This document shows positions 15,397 through 21,457 of a stretch of DNA of 25,068 bases, piece by piece (the stretch's first letter is position 1; every line of letters begins with the position of its first letter). The translations under genes and the position numbers were made by a program. Origin of the DNA: Porticoccus sp. (GTDB taxonomy: Bacteria > Pseudomonadota > Gammaproteobacteria > Pseudomonadales > Porticoccaceae); NCBI GenBank assembly GCA_002685455.1, contig NYXF01000036.1, forward strand, positions 8,549-33,616, read 5' to 3'. Below the pieces are notes generated by a model. That model was not told the DNA's origin, made no database searches, and saw only the letters and a program-made list of their open reading frames with translations.

Positions 15397-16077
15397 TTAT
15401 TTACCTCTATTCATTTTAGACCATGCATCGGGATCAATTAAAAATTCCTCAATTTTTGATATTGAGGATTTATCTATATAGTTGTTATCCTTACATACAG
15501 ACAACACATCCTTCCAAGTTGTAAGATAATGTAATTTTATTTCACTCGCGGCCAATATTTCTTGTGTATTAGGAAAAATATCGTAAAAAAAGAGAACGAA
15601 GGTATCGGTAACCTCTGCACCTGCCTCCCTAAGTGCGTTACAAAATTTAATTTTACTACCACCATCAGTAGTTAGATCTTCTACTAAAAGAACTCTGGAG
15701 CCTTCTTTAATTAGACCTTCTATTTGAGCATCTTTTCCAAACCCTTTTGGTTTTTTTCTTACGTATTGCATTGGTAGAGAAAGCCTTTCTGATAGCCAGG
15801 CAGCAAAGGGTATACCAGCTGTTTCTCCACCCGCTATAGCATCAATTGATTCAAATCCGATATCTCTGAGCACTATTGAGGCACCAAAATCCATGAGAGC
15901 TGACCTTACTCTAGGAAAGGATATTATTTTTCTACAATCGATATAAACTGGACTGACCTTGCCAGATGTCAGCACAAAAGGGTCACTTGGCCTAAAGTTA
16001 ATTGCACCTATTTCTAGAAGCATTTTAGCGCTTAAAGAAGCTATAATTTTTTTATCAGGGAAACTATTAAAAGACAT
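15397..16077 (-). CDS. pyrE: orotate phosphoribosyltransferase, alphaproteobacterial-like form
   Basis: Joins orotate to PRPP to give OMP in pyrimidine synthesis. It has 226 residues from the ATG at 16077 ([10 protein letters not shown]), which has TTGGAGCA just upstream. The open frame extends to 16137, but that leader is unconserved. The PRPP-binding loop is [14 protein letters not shown] at about 129-142, and [25 protein letters not shown] is at about 34-58. These stretches, [17 protein letters not shown] and the C-terminal FLIDPDAW resemble alphaproteobacterial PyrE more than the 213-residue E. coli type, judged from memory. It is divergent from the rhodopsin gene. Confidence 0.94.
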
Positions 16078-16160
16078 TACTGCTCCAAATAATGTGTTTA
16101 AAAAATAATTAAACTTCATATTGCCAGAATAGGGCAATTTTATCTATGCATTGATATTAA

Positions 16161-16503: not shown

Positions 16504-17199
16504 ATGGAAACGACAGGTTTGAATCCTAATGATTATGTAGGAGTCAGTTTCTGGATTATATCCGCAGCAATGGTTGCGGCAACATATTTTTTCACTGTTG
16601 AACGTGATCGCGCAGAAGGCAAGTGGAAAACATCTTTAACCGTTGCCGCTATGGTTACTGGTATCGCAGCGATTCATTACTTCTATATGAGAGGAGTCTG
16701 GATTAATACAGGCGCAAGCCCAACAGTATTCCGCTACGTTGATTGGCTACTAACTGTGCCACTACAAATCGTCGAGTTCTTCTTGATTCTTGCTGCTATT
16801 GCTGTAGTTCGTGCTGCCTTGTTCTGGAAGCTATTGATTGCATCAGTTGTGATGTTAGTCGGTGGATATCTTGGAGAAACAGGAGCTATGGATATCTGGT
16901 TAGCATTTATCATCGGTATGGCTGGATGGATTTATATCATCTATGAGATATTTGTTGGTGAAGCTAGTCAAATCAGTGCAGCTCAGGGTACTGAAGCTAG
17001 TAAAACAGCATTCAATGCGCTTCGCTTGATTGTGACTGTTGGTTGGTCAATCTATCCAATAGGTTACGTTCTAGGTATTGGCTCAGAAGGTTCAGCGGCT
17101 AACCTTAACCTAGTATACAACCTTGCAGATTTTGTTAACAAAATCGCATTTGGTGTTGTTATTTGGGTAGCAGCTACTTCCTCGTCTAAATCAGCCTAA
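16504..17199 (+). CDS. proteorhodopsin, predicted blue-absorbing proton pump
   Basis: Seven-helix retinal protein of the inner membrane that pumps protons outward in light. It has 231 residues. Relative to green proteorhodopsin: proton acceptor D80 (D97), T84 (T101) and donor E91 (E108) in RYVDWLLTVPLQIVEF; H58 (H75); retinal Schiff-base K213 (K231) in LADFVNKIAFG. The tuning position (L/Q105) is Q88, which in this family shifts absorption to blue. Regions such as YVGVSFWIIS, FTVERDR and YMRGVW are typical of marine gammaproteobacterial proteorhodopsins. No N-terminal signal peptide is encoded. Its codon use looks richer in G/C than the crt genes, consistent with high expression. It is followed by its own terminator. 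Confidence 0.96.
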   Translation: METTGLNPNDYVGVSFWIISAAMVAATYFFTVERDRAEGKWKTSLTVAAMVTGIAAIHYFYMRGVWINTGASPTVFRYVDWLLTVPLQIVEFFLILAAIAVVRAALFWKLLIASVVMLVGGYLGETGAMDIWLAFIIGMAGWIYIIYEIFVGEASQISAAQGTEASKTAFNALRLIVTVGWSIYPIGYVLGIGSEGSAANLNLVYNLADFVNKIAFGVVIWVAATSSSKSA

Positions 17200-17227
17200 A
17201 ACTGAGATTCGAGTTTAAGTAATAAAT

Positions 17228-17267
17228 TTGGCGTTATGGGATATTTAATCCTGTAGCGCCAATTTTT
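17228..17267 (+). terminator. intrinsic terminator between the two rhodopsin genes
   Basis: Left arm TTGGCGTTATGGGA (17228-17241) pairs with TCCTGTAGCGCCAA (17249-17262): 14 pairs including three G-U, loop TATTTAA, followed by TTTTT (17263-17267). It starts 28 bases after the first rhodopsin stop. Confidence 0.85.
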
Positions 17268-17288
17268 ATAATACTTTTAAAAAATTAT

Positions 17289-17317
17289 TTGTTCCGATCA
17301 ATAGAAGGTTTTATAAA
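17289..17317 (+). promoter_or_regulatory. candidate promoter of the second rhodopsin gene
   Basis: TTGTTC (17289-17294), a 17-base spacer, then TATAAA (17312-17317). It lies between the preceding terminator and the GAGGAG ribosome site at 17332-17337. The -10 is good (5 of 6) and the -35 only partial (3 of 6). Position argues for it more than sequence does. Confidence 0.4.
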
Positions 17318-17346
17318 AATTTTATTTTCTTGAGGAGAATTAAAAA

Positions 17347-18096
17347 ATGGATTTAAGTGTAGGGGATTATAACCTCGTTTTTAATTCATTATCCTTTGCA
17401 ATTGCAACGTTTGGGGCAGCTACAGTATTTATGTTTGCTCAGCGAAGTCAAGTTGCACCAGCATATAAAACAGCACTTACATTATCAGGCTTGGTATGCT
17501 TAATAGCTTTCTATCATTACGTTAGAATGTTTGAGAGCTTTGAACATGCATATATACTTAAAAATGGAGTAGTAACAGCGACAGGTGCGGCGTTTAATGA
17601 CGCATATCGTTATGTAGACTGGCTGCTAACTGTACCATTACTCTTACTGGAGCTAGTCTTGGTAATGAGGCTTAGCAAGGAAGATACCTATTCAAAGGGC
17701 ACGAAGCTTGCAATCGCTTCAGCACTAATGGTTATTTTAGGTTACCCTGGCGAAGTGGCCGCAACAGGCAATGAACGTTGGTTTTGGTGGATTGCTGCAA
17801 TGATTCCCTTCATTTATATAATAAAGGAATTGGTTGGAGGTTTAAGTGCCTCGATTGATTCTCAACCAGTAAATGTTAAGGGATTGGTTGCTAATGCTCG
17901 AACCTTAACTATTCTGTCATGGTGCTTCTATCCAATAGTGTTTATTCTACCAATGCTTGGTATTGGAGGTTTAGAGCTTGGCAAGATCAATGCTGCTGTT
18001 CAAGTTGGATATACTGTTGCAGATGTAGTTGCTAAAGCTGGTTTTGGTATTATGATTTATATGATTGCTCAACGAAAATCTGATGCTGGCGCTTAA
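17347..18096 (+). CDS. xanthorhodopsin-like proton pump, predicted green-absorbing
   Basis: Second seven-helix retinal proton pump. It has 249 residues. Stretches such as GDYNLVFNSLSFAIAT, AFNDAYRYVDWLLTVPLLLLELVLVM, LGYPGEV and QVGYTVADVVAKAGFGIMIY match xanthorhodopsin much better than proteorhodopsin. Pump residues: H57, D91, T95, E102 and Schiff-base K230. The tuning residue is L99, predicting green absorption. The residue aligned with xanthorhodopsin G156, whose smallness opens a window for a carotenoid antenna, is W148 here, so antenna binding is not expected. ATG 17347 follows GAGGAG with nine bases between. It lies 147 bp after the first rhodopsin and is only distantly related to it, so it was acquired rather than duplicated. 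Confidence 0.95.
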   Translation: MDLSVGDYNLVFNSLSFAIATFGAATVFMFAQRSQVAPAYKTALTLSGLVCLIAFYHYVRMFESFEHAYILKNGVVTATGAAFNDAYRYVDWLLTVPLLLLELVLVMRLSKEDTYSKGTKLAIASALMVILGYPGEVAATGNERWFWWIAAMIPFIYIIKELVGGLSASIDSQPVNVKGLVANARTLTILSWCFYPIVFILPMLGIGGLELGKINAAVQVGYTVADVVAKAGFGIMIYMIAQRKSDAGA

Positions 18097-18117: not shown

Positions 18118-18148
18118 AAAAAAACGTGCCCTAATGGCGCGTTTTTTT
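18118..18148 (+). terminator. strong intrinsic terminator between the second rhodopsin and crtE
   Basis: AAAAAAACGTGCC (18118-18130) pairs with GGCGCGTTTTTTT (18136-18148) around loop CTAAT: 13 pairs with one G-U, ending in seven T. A smaller hairpin GAGC/GCTC (18104-18116) precedes it. It ends 24 bases before the crtE start, so crtE transcription depends on read-through or on a promoter inside this short stretch. Confidence 0.85.
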
Positions 18149-18172: not shown

Positions 18173-19111
18173 ATGAAGTATTATATGCCACCAGAGGCAG
18201 ATGAATTCCTCCATATCGTTAAAGAAGAGTTCGCTAGAAGTTTTGATGTGAAAGAATCATTTATATCTGATTGGCTTAAACATCACAATAAGTCTAAGGG
18301 TAAATGGATGAGAGCTCGCTTAGCTCTCGCTTCTGGTGGGTTACTTGGGCTTTCGAATCAAACATTTATAAAATGGGCCGTAGTATGCGAGCTGATTCAT
18401 AGTGCTTCACTTTTGCATGACGATATATGTGATGAAGACTCAATGAGGCGAGGAAAAAAGTCTCTATGGAAAGAATTCGGAATACCTGCAGCAGTTTGCA
18501 CTGGTGATTACTTAATTGCAGAATCCTTTAGAAAGCTCACTGAAATTGAACAAGGTTGGCATCAAAATATACTACTAAAGCTTTTATCATGCTCAGTAAA
18601 AGAAATTATATTTGGCCAGTCGTTAGATGTAAGTTTAAACCATCTGACGCTAACCAGAGAGCAATGTCGAAAGATAGCTATTGATAAGACGGGTCCGCTG
18701 ATAGCGTTACCTATGATGGGTATGTTTCGTTGTAAAGAGCTTACGGAAGATGAATGCTCCGCACTAAAAGAAATATCCAATGAATTAGGCTTTGCTTATC
18801 AATATTTAAATGATGTAGAAAATATTATTGGCGCCGAGCAGGAGATCTCTTCAGATTTTCTGAAGGGACACCCAAATTTCATGGTTATACGTATACTGGA
18901 AGGTCTATCAAACTCAGAGAAAAAAATTATATTTAGTCAGCCAGAAAGATTTAATGATTTTATATCAAGAAAAAATTTCATCCGATCACAGGATGAGATA
19001 ACTGCTATACTTAATAAAGCAATAATGGATAATCATCGATTACCTATAATTATTCAACCAATCATCCAGTCACTTAAAGATGAAATTATTAAAAGGCTTT
19101 GCATGATATGA
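18173..19111 (+). CDS. crtE: geranylgeranyl diphosphate synthase (carotenoid type)
   Basis: Makes GGPP from shorter prenyl diphosphates, the first step toward retinal. It has 312 residues from ATG 18173, which has GAGAG five bases upstream. The frame extends to ATG 18134, but that start lies inside the terminator hairpin. The first Asp-rich motif is intact (LLHDDICDED, D83/D84/D87). The second, normally DDxxD, reads NDVEN (213-217), keeping only the middle Asp. KTGPLIALP (172-180) is conserved. Product length is inferred from context and the small residues before the first motif. Its stop overlaps crtI by 4 bases (ATGA). Confidence 0.9.
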   Translation: MKYYMPPEADEFLHIVKEEFARSFDVKESFISDWLKHHNKSKGKWMRARLALASGGLLGLSNQTFIKWAVVCELIHSASLLHDDICDEDSMRRGKKSLWKEFGIPAAVCTGDYLIAESFRKLTEIEQGWHQNILLKLLSCSVKEIIFGQSLDVSLNHLTLTREQCRKIAIDKTGPLIALPMMGMFRCKELTEDECSALKEISNELGFAYQYLNDVENIIGAEQEISSDFLKGHPNFMVIRILEGLSNSEKKIIFSQPERFNDFISRKNFIRSQDEITAILNKAIMDNHRLPIIIQPIIQSLKDEIIKRLCMI

Positions 19112-20577
19112 AAAGTGTTGCAGTAATAGGTGGAGGATTTGGTGGTATAGCTGCCGCTATTCGACTAAAAGCAAGGGGTAATGAAGTAACTATTTATGAG
19201 CGCTTAGATAAATTAGGGGGAAGAGCTCAAGTATTCAAAAAAGATGGCTATTTGCATGACGCTGGGCCCACAGTAATCACTGCGCCAAATCTATTTTATG
19301 AGCTATTTGAATTATTTGGTGAAAATTTAGAGGATCACCTTGAATTCAAACCACTAAGTACTTGGTATAGATTTCGCTTTAATGATCAAACAGAGTTTGA
19401 TTATGGGTCAGACAAAGAGAAAATGCTCAGCCAAATTGAAGAGCTGTCACCTGAAGATGTCTCAGGTTATTTAAATATGCTTAAAGCGTCGCAAGAAATA
19501 TTTAAACTTGGTTATGAGAAGTTAGCAGGGCATCCATTCAACAGACTGTCCACAATGCTACGTTACGGGCCAGATATTATAAAAATGAGAGGCTATCGTT
19601 CAGTTTATAGCTTCGTATCTAAATATATTAAGCATCCAAATCTACGTCAAGCTTTTTCAATTCAGCCGCTTTTAGTTGGAGGCAATCCTTTTACAACATC
19701 ATCAATATACTCTCTAATTCATGCGCTAGAACAAAAATGGGGTATCTTCTTCTGTATGGGCGGAACAGGAAAACTTGTATTTGAGCTTGAAAAATTAATG
19801 TTAAGAAATGGAATTAAGATAAATTATTCATCTGATGTAACTCATTTTTCTACATCTAATAAATTAATTTCAAGAATCAACTTTTCAAATAATGAGAGTA
19901 GGGCGTTTGATTATTTTATAAGCAACGCTGATCCGATACAGGTGTCAACAGAACTCCTAAAGAATAAAAAAATATCTTTTCATAATCAACTTATTAATAA
20001 ATATGCGAAACACTCAATGGGTTTATTTGTATTATTCTTCGGATCTTCTAAATGTTATGAAAATGTGGCGCATCATACGATATGGATGGGACCAAGATAC
20101 AAAGAGCTACTTGAGGACATATTTGATAATTATCATTTATCAGAAGATTTTTCTATATATCTGCATAGACCTACTTGCACAGATAAATCTTTCGCCCCAA
20201 GCAATCATGACAGCTTCTATGCACTTGTGCCGGTACCTAATCTGAAAGGTGAGCAAGACTGGTCTAAAATTAAAGAAGAATTTTCAAAAAGAATTTTAAA
20301 TGCTCTTGATAAAACAATAATGCCGGGCATTAACATAAACGCTAAAGAAATATTTTGTATGACTCCAGAAGATTTCAAAACCAATTACAGAACACCATTT
20401 GGAAGTGGTTTTTCAATAGCTCCAATTTTAACTCAATCTGCTTGGTTTAGAACTCACAATCAAGATGATATGTATAAAAATTTATTCTATGTGGGGGCAG
20501 GAACTCATCCAGGCGCAGGTGTTCCTGGAGTCATAAATTCCGCAAAAGTAGTAGAAAAAATTATTTACCATGACTAA
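19108..20577 (+). CDS. crtI: phytoene desaturase (lycopene-forming)
   Basis: FAD-dependent membrane-associated enzyme that takes phytoene through successive desaturations to lycopene. It has 489 residues from ATG 19108. An upstream in-frame TTG at 19099 is too close to the AAAAGG at 19091-19096 to be used. N-terminal dinucleotide-binding motif VAVIGGGFGGIAAAIRL, then YERLDKLGGRAQVFKKDGY and DAGPTVITAPN. The C-terminal FAD signature is NLFYVGAGTHPGAGVPGVINSAK. Both are hallmarks of bacterial CrtI. It overlaps crtE by 4 bases and crtB by 8, so the operon is translationally coupled. That it makes lycopene is inferred from the following cyclase. Confidence 0.95.
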   Translation: MKSVAVIGGGFGGIAAAIRLKARGNEVTIYERLDKLGGRAQVFKKDGYLHDAGPTVITAPNLFYELFELFGENLEDHLEFKPLSTWYRFRFNDQTEFDYGSDKEKMLSQIEELSPEDVSGYLNMLKASQEIFKLGYEKLAGHPFNRLSTMLRYGPDIIKMRGYRSVYSFVSKYIKHPNLRQAFSIQPLLVGGNPFTTSSIYSLIHALEQKWGIFFCMGGTGKLVFELEKLMLRNGIKINYSSDVTHFSTSNKLISRINFSNNESRAFDYFISNADPIQVSTELLKNKKISFHNQLINKYAKHSMGLFVLFFGSSKCYENVAHHTIWMGPRYKELLEDIFDNYHLSEDFSIYLHRPTCTDKSFAPSNHDSFYALVPVPNLKGEQDWSKIKEEFSKRILNALDKTIMPGININAKEIFCMTPEDFKTNYRTPFGSGFSIAPILTQSAWFRTHNQDDMYKNLFYVGAGTHPGAGVPGVINSAKVVEKIIYHD

Positions 20578-21457
20578 TTATTCTTACATCATGAAGAATC
20601 ATGGAAAAACTTTTTTTTGGGCAACAGCATTCCTCGAAAAGAGAACAGCTGATGATTTGTACTCAGTTTATGCATTTTGTCGTCGTATTGACGACCTAAT
20701 AGACAACAATCAATCAAATGATACTTCATATGAGGACTTTTTTAAGGTAAAAGATGCATGGGTTGATGATAAATTTACAGGTGCATTTGATGAATTAAAA
20801 AGCATAGATGAGAAGTTCATGCCAAGGGAGAAGGTCCTTAAGGAGTTCCTGAAAGGGCAAACTAGTGATATCTCACACAAACAACCAAAAAATATCAGCG
20901 AACTGCTCATATATTGCTATCAGGTAGCCGGTGCTGTTGGTTTGATGGTTTGCGATGTTATAGGGATCAGAGATCCTCGCTTAAAATATTTTGCTATTGA
21001 TCTAGGTATTGCGATGCAGTTAACAAATATATGTAGAGATATAAAAGAAGATGCTTCGATAAATAGAATTTATTTACCGAAAGATATGATCAACTTGAAG
21101 TTAGAAAGCTATATAAATCCGACAGAAGAAGAGCTAAAAAGAATTAATTTAGCAAGAAACGATTTACTGGATTTAGCAAACAAGTATTATGAAAGTGGTG
21201 AAAAAGGTATAAGTCATCTGCCTTCAAAAACTGCAAGAGCTGTTCTTATTGCATCAAAGCTTTATCAGTATATTGGGACAAAAATCATAAATGGCGAAAT
21301 TTCTTATCAAGCAAATCGTGTTTATCTGAATATATTTGAGAAACTAAAGATAACAACTAAGTTATTATTCAAATTAAACAGGAGAAAAAATATAGAAATA
21401 CATGATGAAATGCTACATTTATCGATCCTAGAACTTCCTGATGCTCATATAAAATGA
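20570..21457 (+). CDS. crtB: phytoene synthase
   Basis: Condenses two GGPP to phytoene, the first committed carotenoid step. It has 295 residues, typical. The two Asp-rich motifs are DDLID (41-45, in YAFCRRIDDLID) and DIKED (157-161, in NICRDIKEDASINRIYLPKD). The KTFFWATAFL opening is usual for the squalene/phytoene synthase family. ATG 20570 lies inside the end of crtI with no evident ribosome site, so translation probably depends on re-initiation. Its stop overlaps crtY by 4 bases (ATGA). Confidence 0.95.
   Translation: MTNYSYIMKNHGKTFFWATAFLEKRTADDLYSVYAFCRRIDDLIDNNQSNDTSYEDFFKVKDAWVDDKFTGAFDELKSIDEKFMPREKVLKEFLKGQTSDISHKQPKNISELLIYCYQVAGAVGLMVCDVIGIRDPRLKYFAIDLGIAMQLTNICRDIKEDASINRIYLPKDMINLKLESYINPTEEELKRINLARNDLLDLANKYYESGEKGISHLPSKTARAVLIASKLYQYIGTKIINGEISYQANRVYLNIFEKLKITTKLLFKLNRRKNIEIHDEMLHLSILELPDAHIK

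What the first reader, a model, noticed from the sequence alone, without database searches (positions are those of the whole stretch)
16504..18096. Adjacent blue-tuned and green-tuned rhodopsin pumps from two different clades
Two proton-pump rhodopsins stand side by side. The first is proteorhodopsin-type with Gln88 at the tuning site (blue). The second is xanthorhodopsin-like with Leu99 (green). Both keep Asp/Thr/Glu and the retinal lysine. They are not recent duplicates. One cell could harvest two spectral bands with a shared retinal supply, or switch between them with depth. Dual rhodopsins are known in some freshwater methylotrophs and flavobacteria; this pairing next to a full retinal operon in a gammaproteobacterium-like genome deserves attention.
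Basis: partly seen in the sequence, partly recalled or inferred. Interest (0 to 1): 0.75.

Follow-up and report, generated by a model that had tools for sequence, protein, structure and literature searches.

The report
Intact blue-green rhodopsin pump tandem
A marine-type bacterium carries two different, apparently working light-driven proton pumps side by side, one tuned to blue and one to green light, in a gene cassette that has moved between bacterial classes; in some close relatives of this arrangement the second pump has lost its light-absorbing site.

Summary
Confirmed: 16504-17199 (R1) is a proteorhodopsin with D80/T84/E91/K213 and Gln88 (blue); 17347-18096 (R2) is xanthorhodopsin-like with D91/T95/E102/K230 and Leu99 (green). 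They share 34.5% identity and head a crtE-I-B-Y-blh retinal operon. R2 has Trp148 at the antenna site, so no carotenoid antenna is expected. The host is a Porticoccaceae-type gammaproteobacterium. Only 2 of 112 genomes of that family and 2 of 32 of an alphaproteobacterial family (Emcibacteraceae) hold the same tandem; flanking genes of the alpha copies are native, so the cassette moved horizontally. The gene order is known from Methylophilaceae: freshwater-type pairs are green/green (8 of 8 read), and marine-type pairs join a blue proteorhodopsin to a partner that lost the acceptor Asp and the retinal Lys (13 of 13; the known Rh-noK tandem). In the window and its 4 gamma/alpha relatives both partners are intact. 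In the window a terminator follows each rhodopsin gene. Trees and terminator layout favour separate assembly of the gamma/alpha pair, but AU tests do not settle it. Two-colour pumping is well supported by sequence and unmeasured: a new variant of a known tandem.

The parts
16504..17199 (+). R1: proteorhodopsin, blue-tuned (Gln88); H58, D80, T84, E91, D209, K213; Phe135 at the antenna site
17228..17262 (+). T1: intrinsic terminator between R1 and R2 (15-pair stem, then TTTTT)
   Evidence: such a site in 22 of 23 tandems examined, against 1 of 230 shuffled intergenic sequences
17347..18096 (+). R2: xanthorhodopsin-like pump, green-tuned (Leu99); H57, D91, T95, E102, D226, K230; Trp148 at the antenna site
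18118..18148 (+). T2: intrinsic terminator between R2 and crtE; core like that after the single XR of OM43-type loci
   Evidence: 5 of 5 window/gamma/alpha (0 of 50 shuffles), 9 of 9 single-XR loci examined (3 of 90 shuffles), 1 of 13 blue-group and 0 of 6 green-group loci
18173..19111 (+). crtE, polyprenyl (GGPP-type) synthase; the listed ORF begins at 18134 inside T2, the real start is more likely 18161 or 18173
   Evidence: start by inspection
19108..20577 (+). crtI, phytoene desaturase (listed ORF start TTG 19099; next ATG 19108)
   Evidence: TIGR02734 531.8 bits, cut-off 238.1
20570..21457 (+). crtB, phytoene synthase
   Evidence: PF00494
21454..22587 (+). crtY, lycopene cyclase
   Evidence: PF05834
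22580..23476 (+). blh, beta-carotene 15,15'-dioxygenase (makes retinal)
   Evidence: TIGR03753 134.3 bits, cut-off 95.25

Best explanation
The region is a mobile phototrophy cassette of a marine Porticoccaceae-type gammaproteobacterium: blue-tuned proteorhodopsin, terminator, green-tuned xanthorhodopsin-like pump without antenna, terminator, then crtE-I-B-Y-blh. Shown: gene order, motifs, tuning residues, purifying selection on both rhodopsins, the same cassette in true alphaproteobacterial contexts, and terminator-like sites after each rhodopsin gene. Inferred: both proteins bind the retinal made by the operon and pump protons outward, R1 near 490 nm and R2 near 525-545 nm (recalled values for such residues), so one cell collects two bands. 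Inferred: each terminator lets only part of transcription pass, so that much rhodopsin and less biosynthetic enzyme is made. Inferred, with less confidence: the gamma/alpha tandem arose by placing a Pseudomonadales-type blue proteorhodopsin with its own terminator in front of an OM43-type XR-terminator-crt cassette, and then passed between Porticoccaceae and Emcibacteraceae.
For: Motifs H/D/T/E/K intact in R1 and R2 of the window and of its 4 gamma/alpha relatives, Q in R1 and L in R2 in 5 of 5. dN/dS for window against L002: 0.064 (R1) and 0.075 (R2); against L001: 0.090 and 0.053; L005 against L007: 0.026 and 0.059. Retinal pathway genes present. Synteny of the window with G001 and G002. Alpha contexts are native: the gene upstream of the L005 tandem (glmS by recall) is 62-68% identical in 7 of 11 other genomes of that family (the other 4 gave only short paralogue matches) and at most 48% in the 10 gamma and 4 beta genomes; the gene downstream of the L007 tandem is 87% in G005 and 49-57% in 8 of 10 further genomes of the family (2 without match), against at most 30% in gamma and 32% in beta. 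crt trees place the gamma and alpha cassettes inside the Methylophilaceae cassettes. R2 of gamma/alpha falls with HTCC2181-type single XRs (100/98); R1 falls with marine proteorhodopsins that include single-PR Pseudomonadales (97/92). The layout R2-T2-crt matches single-XR loci, 9 of 9 examined.
Against: No spectra, pumping or expression data. Spectral class rests on one residue each. AU tests do not reject one clade with the blue-group Methylophilaceae tandems (R1 p 0.21; R2 p 0.056; both groups were named after seeing trees). The crt genes are closest to those of two blue-group genomes (G161, G162), not to HTCC2181-type singles as R2 is, so the cassette is a mosaic and its assembly route uncertain. 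The crt trees put the alpha cassettes inside the gamma ones, but the R1 and R2 trees put them beside each other, so the direction between these two is not firm. The concatenated crt tree carries a long-branch warning at its root. In blue-group tandems the XR partner has no retinal site (13 of 13), which shows that a non-pump role of the partner is possible.
Confidence: 0.75

Rival explanations
1. R2 serves mainly as a structural or regulatory partner of R1 in mixed oligomers, as proposed for the retinal-less Rh-noK partners of marine betaproteobacteria; its colour is secondary.
For: The same gene order in blue-group Methylophilaceae has an XR partner lacking Asp and Lys in 13 of 13 genomes, still conserved (dN/dS 0.109 and 0.111 in the two comparisons made). 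PMC10308929 (passages read) reports that Yamauchi et al. 2019 speculated on a regulating multimer. Pairing persists in the green group, where both are green.
Against: In the window and 4 gamma/alpha relatives R2 keeps every pump residue checked, which a purely structural partner need not. Close relatives of R2 work without a proteorhodopsin partner: 8 of 8 single-XR Methylophilaceae genomes searched whole hold only that one rhodopsin.
Confidence: 0.15
2. The tandem is one old unit that spread intact among Methylophilaceae, Porticoccaceae and Emcibacteraceae; singles arose by loss of R1 and the Rh-noK form by decay of R2.
For: Same gene order in the tandems compared; AU tests do not reject grouping gamma/alpha with blue-group Methylophilaceae; crt genes of gamma/alpha are sister to two blue-group genomes.
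Against: R1, R2 and crt genes have different nearest relatives. Terminators differ: blue-group tandems have one after R1 and, in 12 of 13, none after R2; gamma/alpha have one after R2 in 5 of 5 and a different stem after R1. Green-group R1 belongs to another proteorhodopsin clade.
Confidence: 0.3
3. The two pumps are redundant and colour is incidental; the gain is a larger total amount of pump or a different pH or kinetic range.
For: Freshwater-type tandems are green/green in 8 of 8 read and published as such.
Against: Blue/green residues are kept in 5 of 5 gamma/alpha tandems from two classes.
Confidence: 0.2

Closest known systems
'Ca. Methylopumilus' PR + xantho-like rhodopsin tandem (Salcher et al. 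2019, PMC6794327; passages and section 16 read)
   Same: PR, then XR-like with Trp at the antenna site, then retinal genes, in that order; the green-group genomes read here, which fit it, keep D and K in both partners
   Different: Published pair is green/green; its PR is from another clade (58-60% identical to R1); terminator after R1 only; host is a freshwater betaproteobacterium. The paper states that marine OM43 carry only the XR-like gene
Rh-noK beside PR in marine betaproteobacteria (Yamauchi et al. 2019; not held, known here only through PMC10308929)
   Same: Tandem of a PR and an XR-related gene; the blue-group genomes read here, which fit it, have R1 77-80% identical to the window's
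   Different: There the XR partner lacks the retinal Lys and, in the genomes read here, the acceptor Asp (13 of 13); in the window both are present
Single XR-like rhodopsin of OM43-type Methylophilaceae (HTCC2181, KB13 and others)
   Same: R2 74-81% identical, same terminator core after it, same crt order
   Different: No proteorhodopsin gene: one rhodopsin in 8 of 8 genomes searched whole
Dokdonia sp. PRO95 PR + xanthorhodopsin-like protein (PMC3587595, passages read)
   Same: A PR and a second rhodopsin with Leu at the tuning position in one genome
   Different: A flavobacterium; the second protein has 280 residues and other relatives; the passages read describe no tandem
FArhodopsin + PR in streamlined marine bacteria (PMC10308929, passages read)
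   Same: Two type-1 rhodopsins in one small marine genome
   Different: FArhodopsin sits in a separate cluster with a flotillin gene and may bind no retinal; the passages read of that single-cell survey report no PR/XR pump pair

Membership tests
Proteorhodopsin (R1) | Best similarity to PR structures; D/T/E triad, retinal Lys, His | tested here: met
Proteorhodopsin (R1) | Gln at the position-105 equivalent (blue class) | tested here: met
   Q88
Proteorhodopsin (R1) | Light-driven outward proton pumping and absorption near 490 nm | not testable with these tools
   needs expression
Xanthorhodopsin / XR-like (R2) | Best similarity to XR, psXR and Gll0198; D/T/E, Lys, His | tested here: met
Xanthorhodopsin with carotenoid antenna (R2) | Gly at the XR-156 position that opens the antenna site | tested here: not met
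   Trp148; among loci L001-L080, 61 have Trp and 19 Gly
Xanthorhodopsin-like pump (R2) | Light-driven proton pumping with green absorption | not testable with these tools
   needs expression
Methylophilaceae PR-XR-crt tandem | Gene order PR, XR-like, crtE-I-B-Y-blh | tested here: met
Methylophilaceae PR-XR-crt tandem | Terminator between PR and XR | tested here: met
Rh-noK tandem | XR partner lacks the retinal-binding Lys | tested here: not met
   K230 present in the window and 4 of 4 gamma/alpha relatives
FArhodopsin | Flotillin gene next to the second rhodopsin | tested here: not met
   neighbours of R2 are R1 and crtE

The most novel reading that the evidence does not exclude
The intact gamma/alpha tandem is the photoactive counterpart of the Rh-noK tandem: R1 and R2 assemble in mixed blue-green oligomers, so that one complex pumps on two colours and the partner also tunes the proteorhodopsin. 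The tandem was assembled independently at least three times (green-group Methylophilaceae, blue-group Methylophilaceae, gamma/alpha), each time with a different proteorhodopsin and terminator, which points to a selected advantage of the pair itself.
Probability: 0.15. Interest if true: 0.75.

Novelty: new variant of a known kind. Interest (0 to 1): 0.52.

Why it matters
Marine proteorhodopsin cells are usually thought of as tuned to one colour (general knowledge). Here one cell keeps a blue and a green pump with a shared retinal supply, and relatives of the same tandem have either two green pumps or a partner without retinal site. That natural series (green/green, blue/blind, blue/green) lets one ask directly why two rhodopsins are paired at all: colour range, dose, or mixed oligomers. 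It also bears on a question left open by Salcher et al. in 2019, whether marine OM43-type methylotrophs ever carry a proteorhodopsin beside the XR: 13 Methylophilaceae genomes found here do (one on separate contigs), 10 of them with the permease that paper calls unique to the marine lineage. Yamauchi et al. 2019, as told in PMC10308929, had already reported such tandems in marine betaproteobacteria, so that part is not new.

Tried and rejected
Antenna-bearing xanthorhodopsin: rejected on Trp148. FArhodopsin: rejected on neighbours and motifs. Recent duplication: rejected at 34.5% identity. Mis-binned alpha contigs: rejected on flanking genes. The promoter scan around R1 and R2 gave 7 hits against a mean of 8.5 in shuffles, so no promoter is claimed. 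Acidity of proteins as a habitat mark was weak; a permease named by Salcher et al. as unique to marine OM43 was used instead (5 of 5 single-XR genomes given, 10 of 13 blue-group, 1 of 10 green-group). Structure prediction was not run, because solved homologues align through the sites in question.

Rows dropped before counts or trees. R1 trees: hits under 52% identity, under 200 residues or with stops, and duplicate loci were left out; one search also left out P0139 and L104, thinned the outgroups, and added nine loci; only part of the 120 listed R1 homologues was used. R2 trees: hits under 56% identity and most of L041-L080 were left out, then thinned again. crt trees: L159 was left out because its crt frames are broken. 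Only the best 120 of 7852 (R2) and of 7994 (R1) protein hits were listed; only the best 80 of 356 loci were kept. Of the rhodopsin places listed were fetched and compared with R1. Five further tandems or fragments (G229, G232, G233, G238, G239) were not read for residues. L011 was not examined for terminators.

Full report
WHAT IS THERE. The window holds R1 (16504-17199, 231 aa) and R2 (17347-18096, 249 aa), followed by crtE, crtI, crtB, crtY and blh. R1 is a proteorhodopsin by best match to solved structures. R2 is xanthorhodopsin-like. The pump residues checked are present in both, with Gln88 in R1 and Leu99 in R2. The two share 34.5% identity. R2 carries Trp148 where xanthorhodopsin has the glycine that admits its carotenoid antenna (alignment to 3ddl; residue counts; the role of that glycine is also stated in PMC6794327); R1 has Phe135 there. 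So the pair is most likely two plain retinal pumps without antenna.

HOST. Upstream of the cassette lie, in order, rseA, lepA, lepB, rnc, era, recO, acpS, cysM, mazG, adk, hemH, tsaB, uppP, a peptidase, trpS, bioA and pyrE (rseA, trpS, bioA and pyrE supported, the other names recalled from their sequences). The same order, at 58-91% protein identity, lies next to the tandem in G001 (record titled Porticoccus sp.; compared from lepB on) and G002 (titled Cellvibrionales UBA4435; from acpS on). G001 is listed in the family of G002. The name Porticoccaceae for that family is taken from these titles. No whole genome is held for the window itself.

HOW COMMON. In the family of G002, 58 of 112 genomes have a rhodopsin over the cut-off; G001 and G002 alone have two adjacent ones (two others, G039 and G109, have two on different contigs). 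In the family of G007, 2 of 32 genomes have any rhodopsin and both hold the tandem; the two records are titled Emcibacteraceae and Kordiimonadaceae. Even draws from the order of G002 (390 genomes), its class (369) and the class of G007 (385) showed no further adjacent pair; they include G001, G002 or G007 themselves. In the family of HTCC2181, 54 of 187 genomes have a rhodopsin, and by coordinates 24 hold two adjacent genes; besides these, G158 has its two genes at the ends of two contigs, G232 has fragments, and G191 has an odd pair. Many of these genomes may be incomplete.

THREE VERSIONS OF ONE ARRANGEMENT. Residues were read in the window, 2 gamma, 2 alpha, 13 blue-group and 8 green-group Methylophilaceae genomes. 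Window, gamma and alpha: R1 H/D/T/Q/E/K and R2 H/D/T/L/E/K, 5 of 5. Green group: R1 Leu at the tuning site, R2 Leu, D and K present in both, 8 of 8 (one R2 is incomplete at its start). Blue group: R1 intact with Gln in 13 of 13, but R2 has Gly (11) or Ser (2) for the acceptor Asp and Ile (12) or Leu (1) for the retinal Lys, 13 of 13, confirmed in a joint alignment. Among the 120 listed homologues of R2, 9 are of this kind. The green group fits the published Methylopumilus pair. The blue group fits the Rh-noK tandem of marine betaproteobacteria, which I know only through PMC10308929. The genomes of both groups are unnamed. The peptide permease family that Salcher et al. describe as unique to marine OM43 is found in 5 of 5 single-XR genomes given (HTCC2181, KB13, LSUCC0717 and two others), 10 of 13 blue-group and 1 of 10 green-group genomes; so I call the blue group marine-type and the green group freshwater-type. 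For comparison, single proteorhodopsins of the family of G002 are split, 15 Gln and 13 Leu of 28 read.

SELECTION. dN/dS for window against L002 is 0.064 for R1 and 0.075 for R2; against L001 0.090 and 0.053; for the two alpha genomes 0.026 and 0.059. Some comparisons were saturated at silent sites, among them R2 of window against L007. Both genes are under strong constraint. R2 of the blue group, though without retinal site, also shows low dN/dS (0.109 and 0.111 in the two pairs compared), so it too probably has a function.

TRANSFER. The alpha carriers are not mis-binned gamma contigs. The gene upstream of the L005 tandem (glmS by recall) is 62-68% identical in 7 of 11 other genomes of the family (the rest gave only short paralogue matches) and at most 48% in the gamma and beta genomes given. 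The gene downstream of the L007 tandem is 87% identical in G005 and 49-57% in 8 of 10 further genomes of the family, against at most 30% in gamma and 32% in beta. Yet R1 is 89-90% and crtI 87-89% identical between the window and the alpha genomes. In rooted crt trees the gamma and alpha cassettes form one clade inside the Methylophilaceae cassettes, with L001 outermost and the alpha ones beside or inside the rest (the concatenated tree carries a long-branch warning at its root). In the R1 and R2 trees alpha and gamma stand beside each other, so the direction of the last transfer is not firm.

ONE ORIGIN OR SEVERAL. R2 of gamma/alpha groups with HTCC2181-type single XRs (100/98), apart from blue-group R2. 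R1 of gamma/alpha groups with marine proteorhodopsins that include single-PR Pseudomonadales (97/92), apart from blue-group R1. Of 20 Pseudomonadales loci fetched, four carry a proteorhodopsin 80-85% identical to R1 and no R2, three of them with their own divergent crt genes; those four genomes have one rhodopsin each. Green-group R1 is from a different proteorhodopsin clade. Against a clean story, the crt genes of gamma/alpha are sister to two blue-group genomes, and AU tests do not reject a common clade with the blue group (p 0.21 for R1; p 0.056 for R2; groups named after seeing the trees). I favour several assemblies, with modest confidence.

TERMINATORS. A hairpin followed by a T run lies between R1 and R2 in 22 of 23 tandems examined, against 1 of 230 shuffled sequences; the miss, L005, has the hairpin but too few T's. 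After R2 such a site is present in 5 of 5 window/gamma/alpha (0 of 50 shuffles), in 9 of 9 single-XR loci examined (3 of 90 shuffles), in 1 of 13 blue-group and 0 of 6 green-group loci. The stem after R2 in gamma/alpha has nearly the same CGCGCC/GGCGCG core as in single-XR loci; blue-group tandems have a similar core (CGCGTC/GGCGCG) after R1 instead; the stem after R1 in gamma/alpha is of another sequence. This layout is what one expects if a proteorhodopsin with its own terminator was placed in front of a single-XR cassette. It also suggests how expression is graded: much rhodopsin, less enzyme. In the window region the simple scan found 4 terminator-like sites against a mean of 1.4 in shuffles, and no promoter signal above chance.

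LITERATURE. Ten searches were made: PR, XR and SAR86; Methylopumilus and rhodopsin; OM43 and xanthorhodopsin; Porticoccaceae and rhodopsin; blue- and green-absorbing in the same genome (no paper); two rhodopsin genes; fenestration; dual rhodopsin; OM43 and proteorhodopsin from 2016; blue-tuned with green-tuned (15 of 20 listed). By title and start of abstract, none of the listed papers describes an intact blue/green PR-XR tandem in gamma- or alphaproteobacteria. Passages of five papers were read, and one whole section of PMC6794327. The library holds open-licence papers only, so this is weak evidence of absence.

VERDICT. The best reading is two working pumps of different colour in one mobile cassette. 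It is a new variant of a known tandem, most interesting as the intact counterpart of the Rh-noK pair.

Noticed in passing
L155-L167 (R2 genes of blue-group Methylophilaceae): The XR-like partner has lost both the acceptor Asp (Gly/Ser) and the retinal Lys (Ile/Leu) in 13 of 13 genomes, with low dN/dS in the two pairs compared; three also have Gln for Glu102. It fits the Rh-noK family known from the literature.
   Followed up: yes
window 15397-16137 (-): The pyrE beside the cassette is 87% and 81% identical in G002 and G001, but 18 of 18 other genomes of the family searched have only matches of 24-31% or none: it looks like a foreign or replaced pyrE.
   Followed up: partly
L005 3-1571 and L007 261-3292, 10830-11501: The two alphaproteobacterial tandems sit beside different genes (a glmS-like gene; an aminotransferase-like fusion, a small ORF and a methyltransferase-like gene; names by recall), so the cassette was placed or moved more than once in that family.
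   Followed up: partly
L159 7193-10537: In G172 crtI, crtB and crtY match only in pieces, while R1 and R2 are whole; sequencing error or decay.
   Followed up: no
L153 (G191 C15:2592-3281): Another Methylophilaceae genome has a proteorhodopsin next to a very divergent rhodopsin-like gene (29% to R1, Ile at the tuning site, one in-frame TGA).
   Followed up: no
P0125 and P0127-P0136: A group of proteorhodopsins 89-92% identical to R1, on contigs up to 590 kb, falls inside the gamma/alpha R1 clade; whether they are paired with an XR could not be seen.
   Followed up: no
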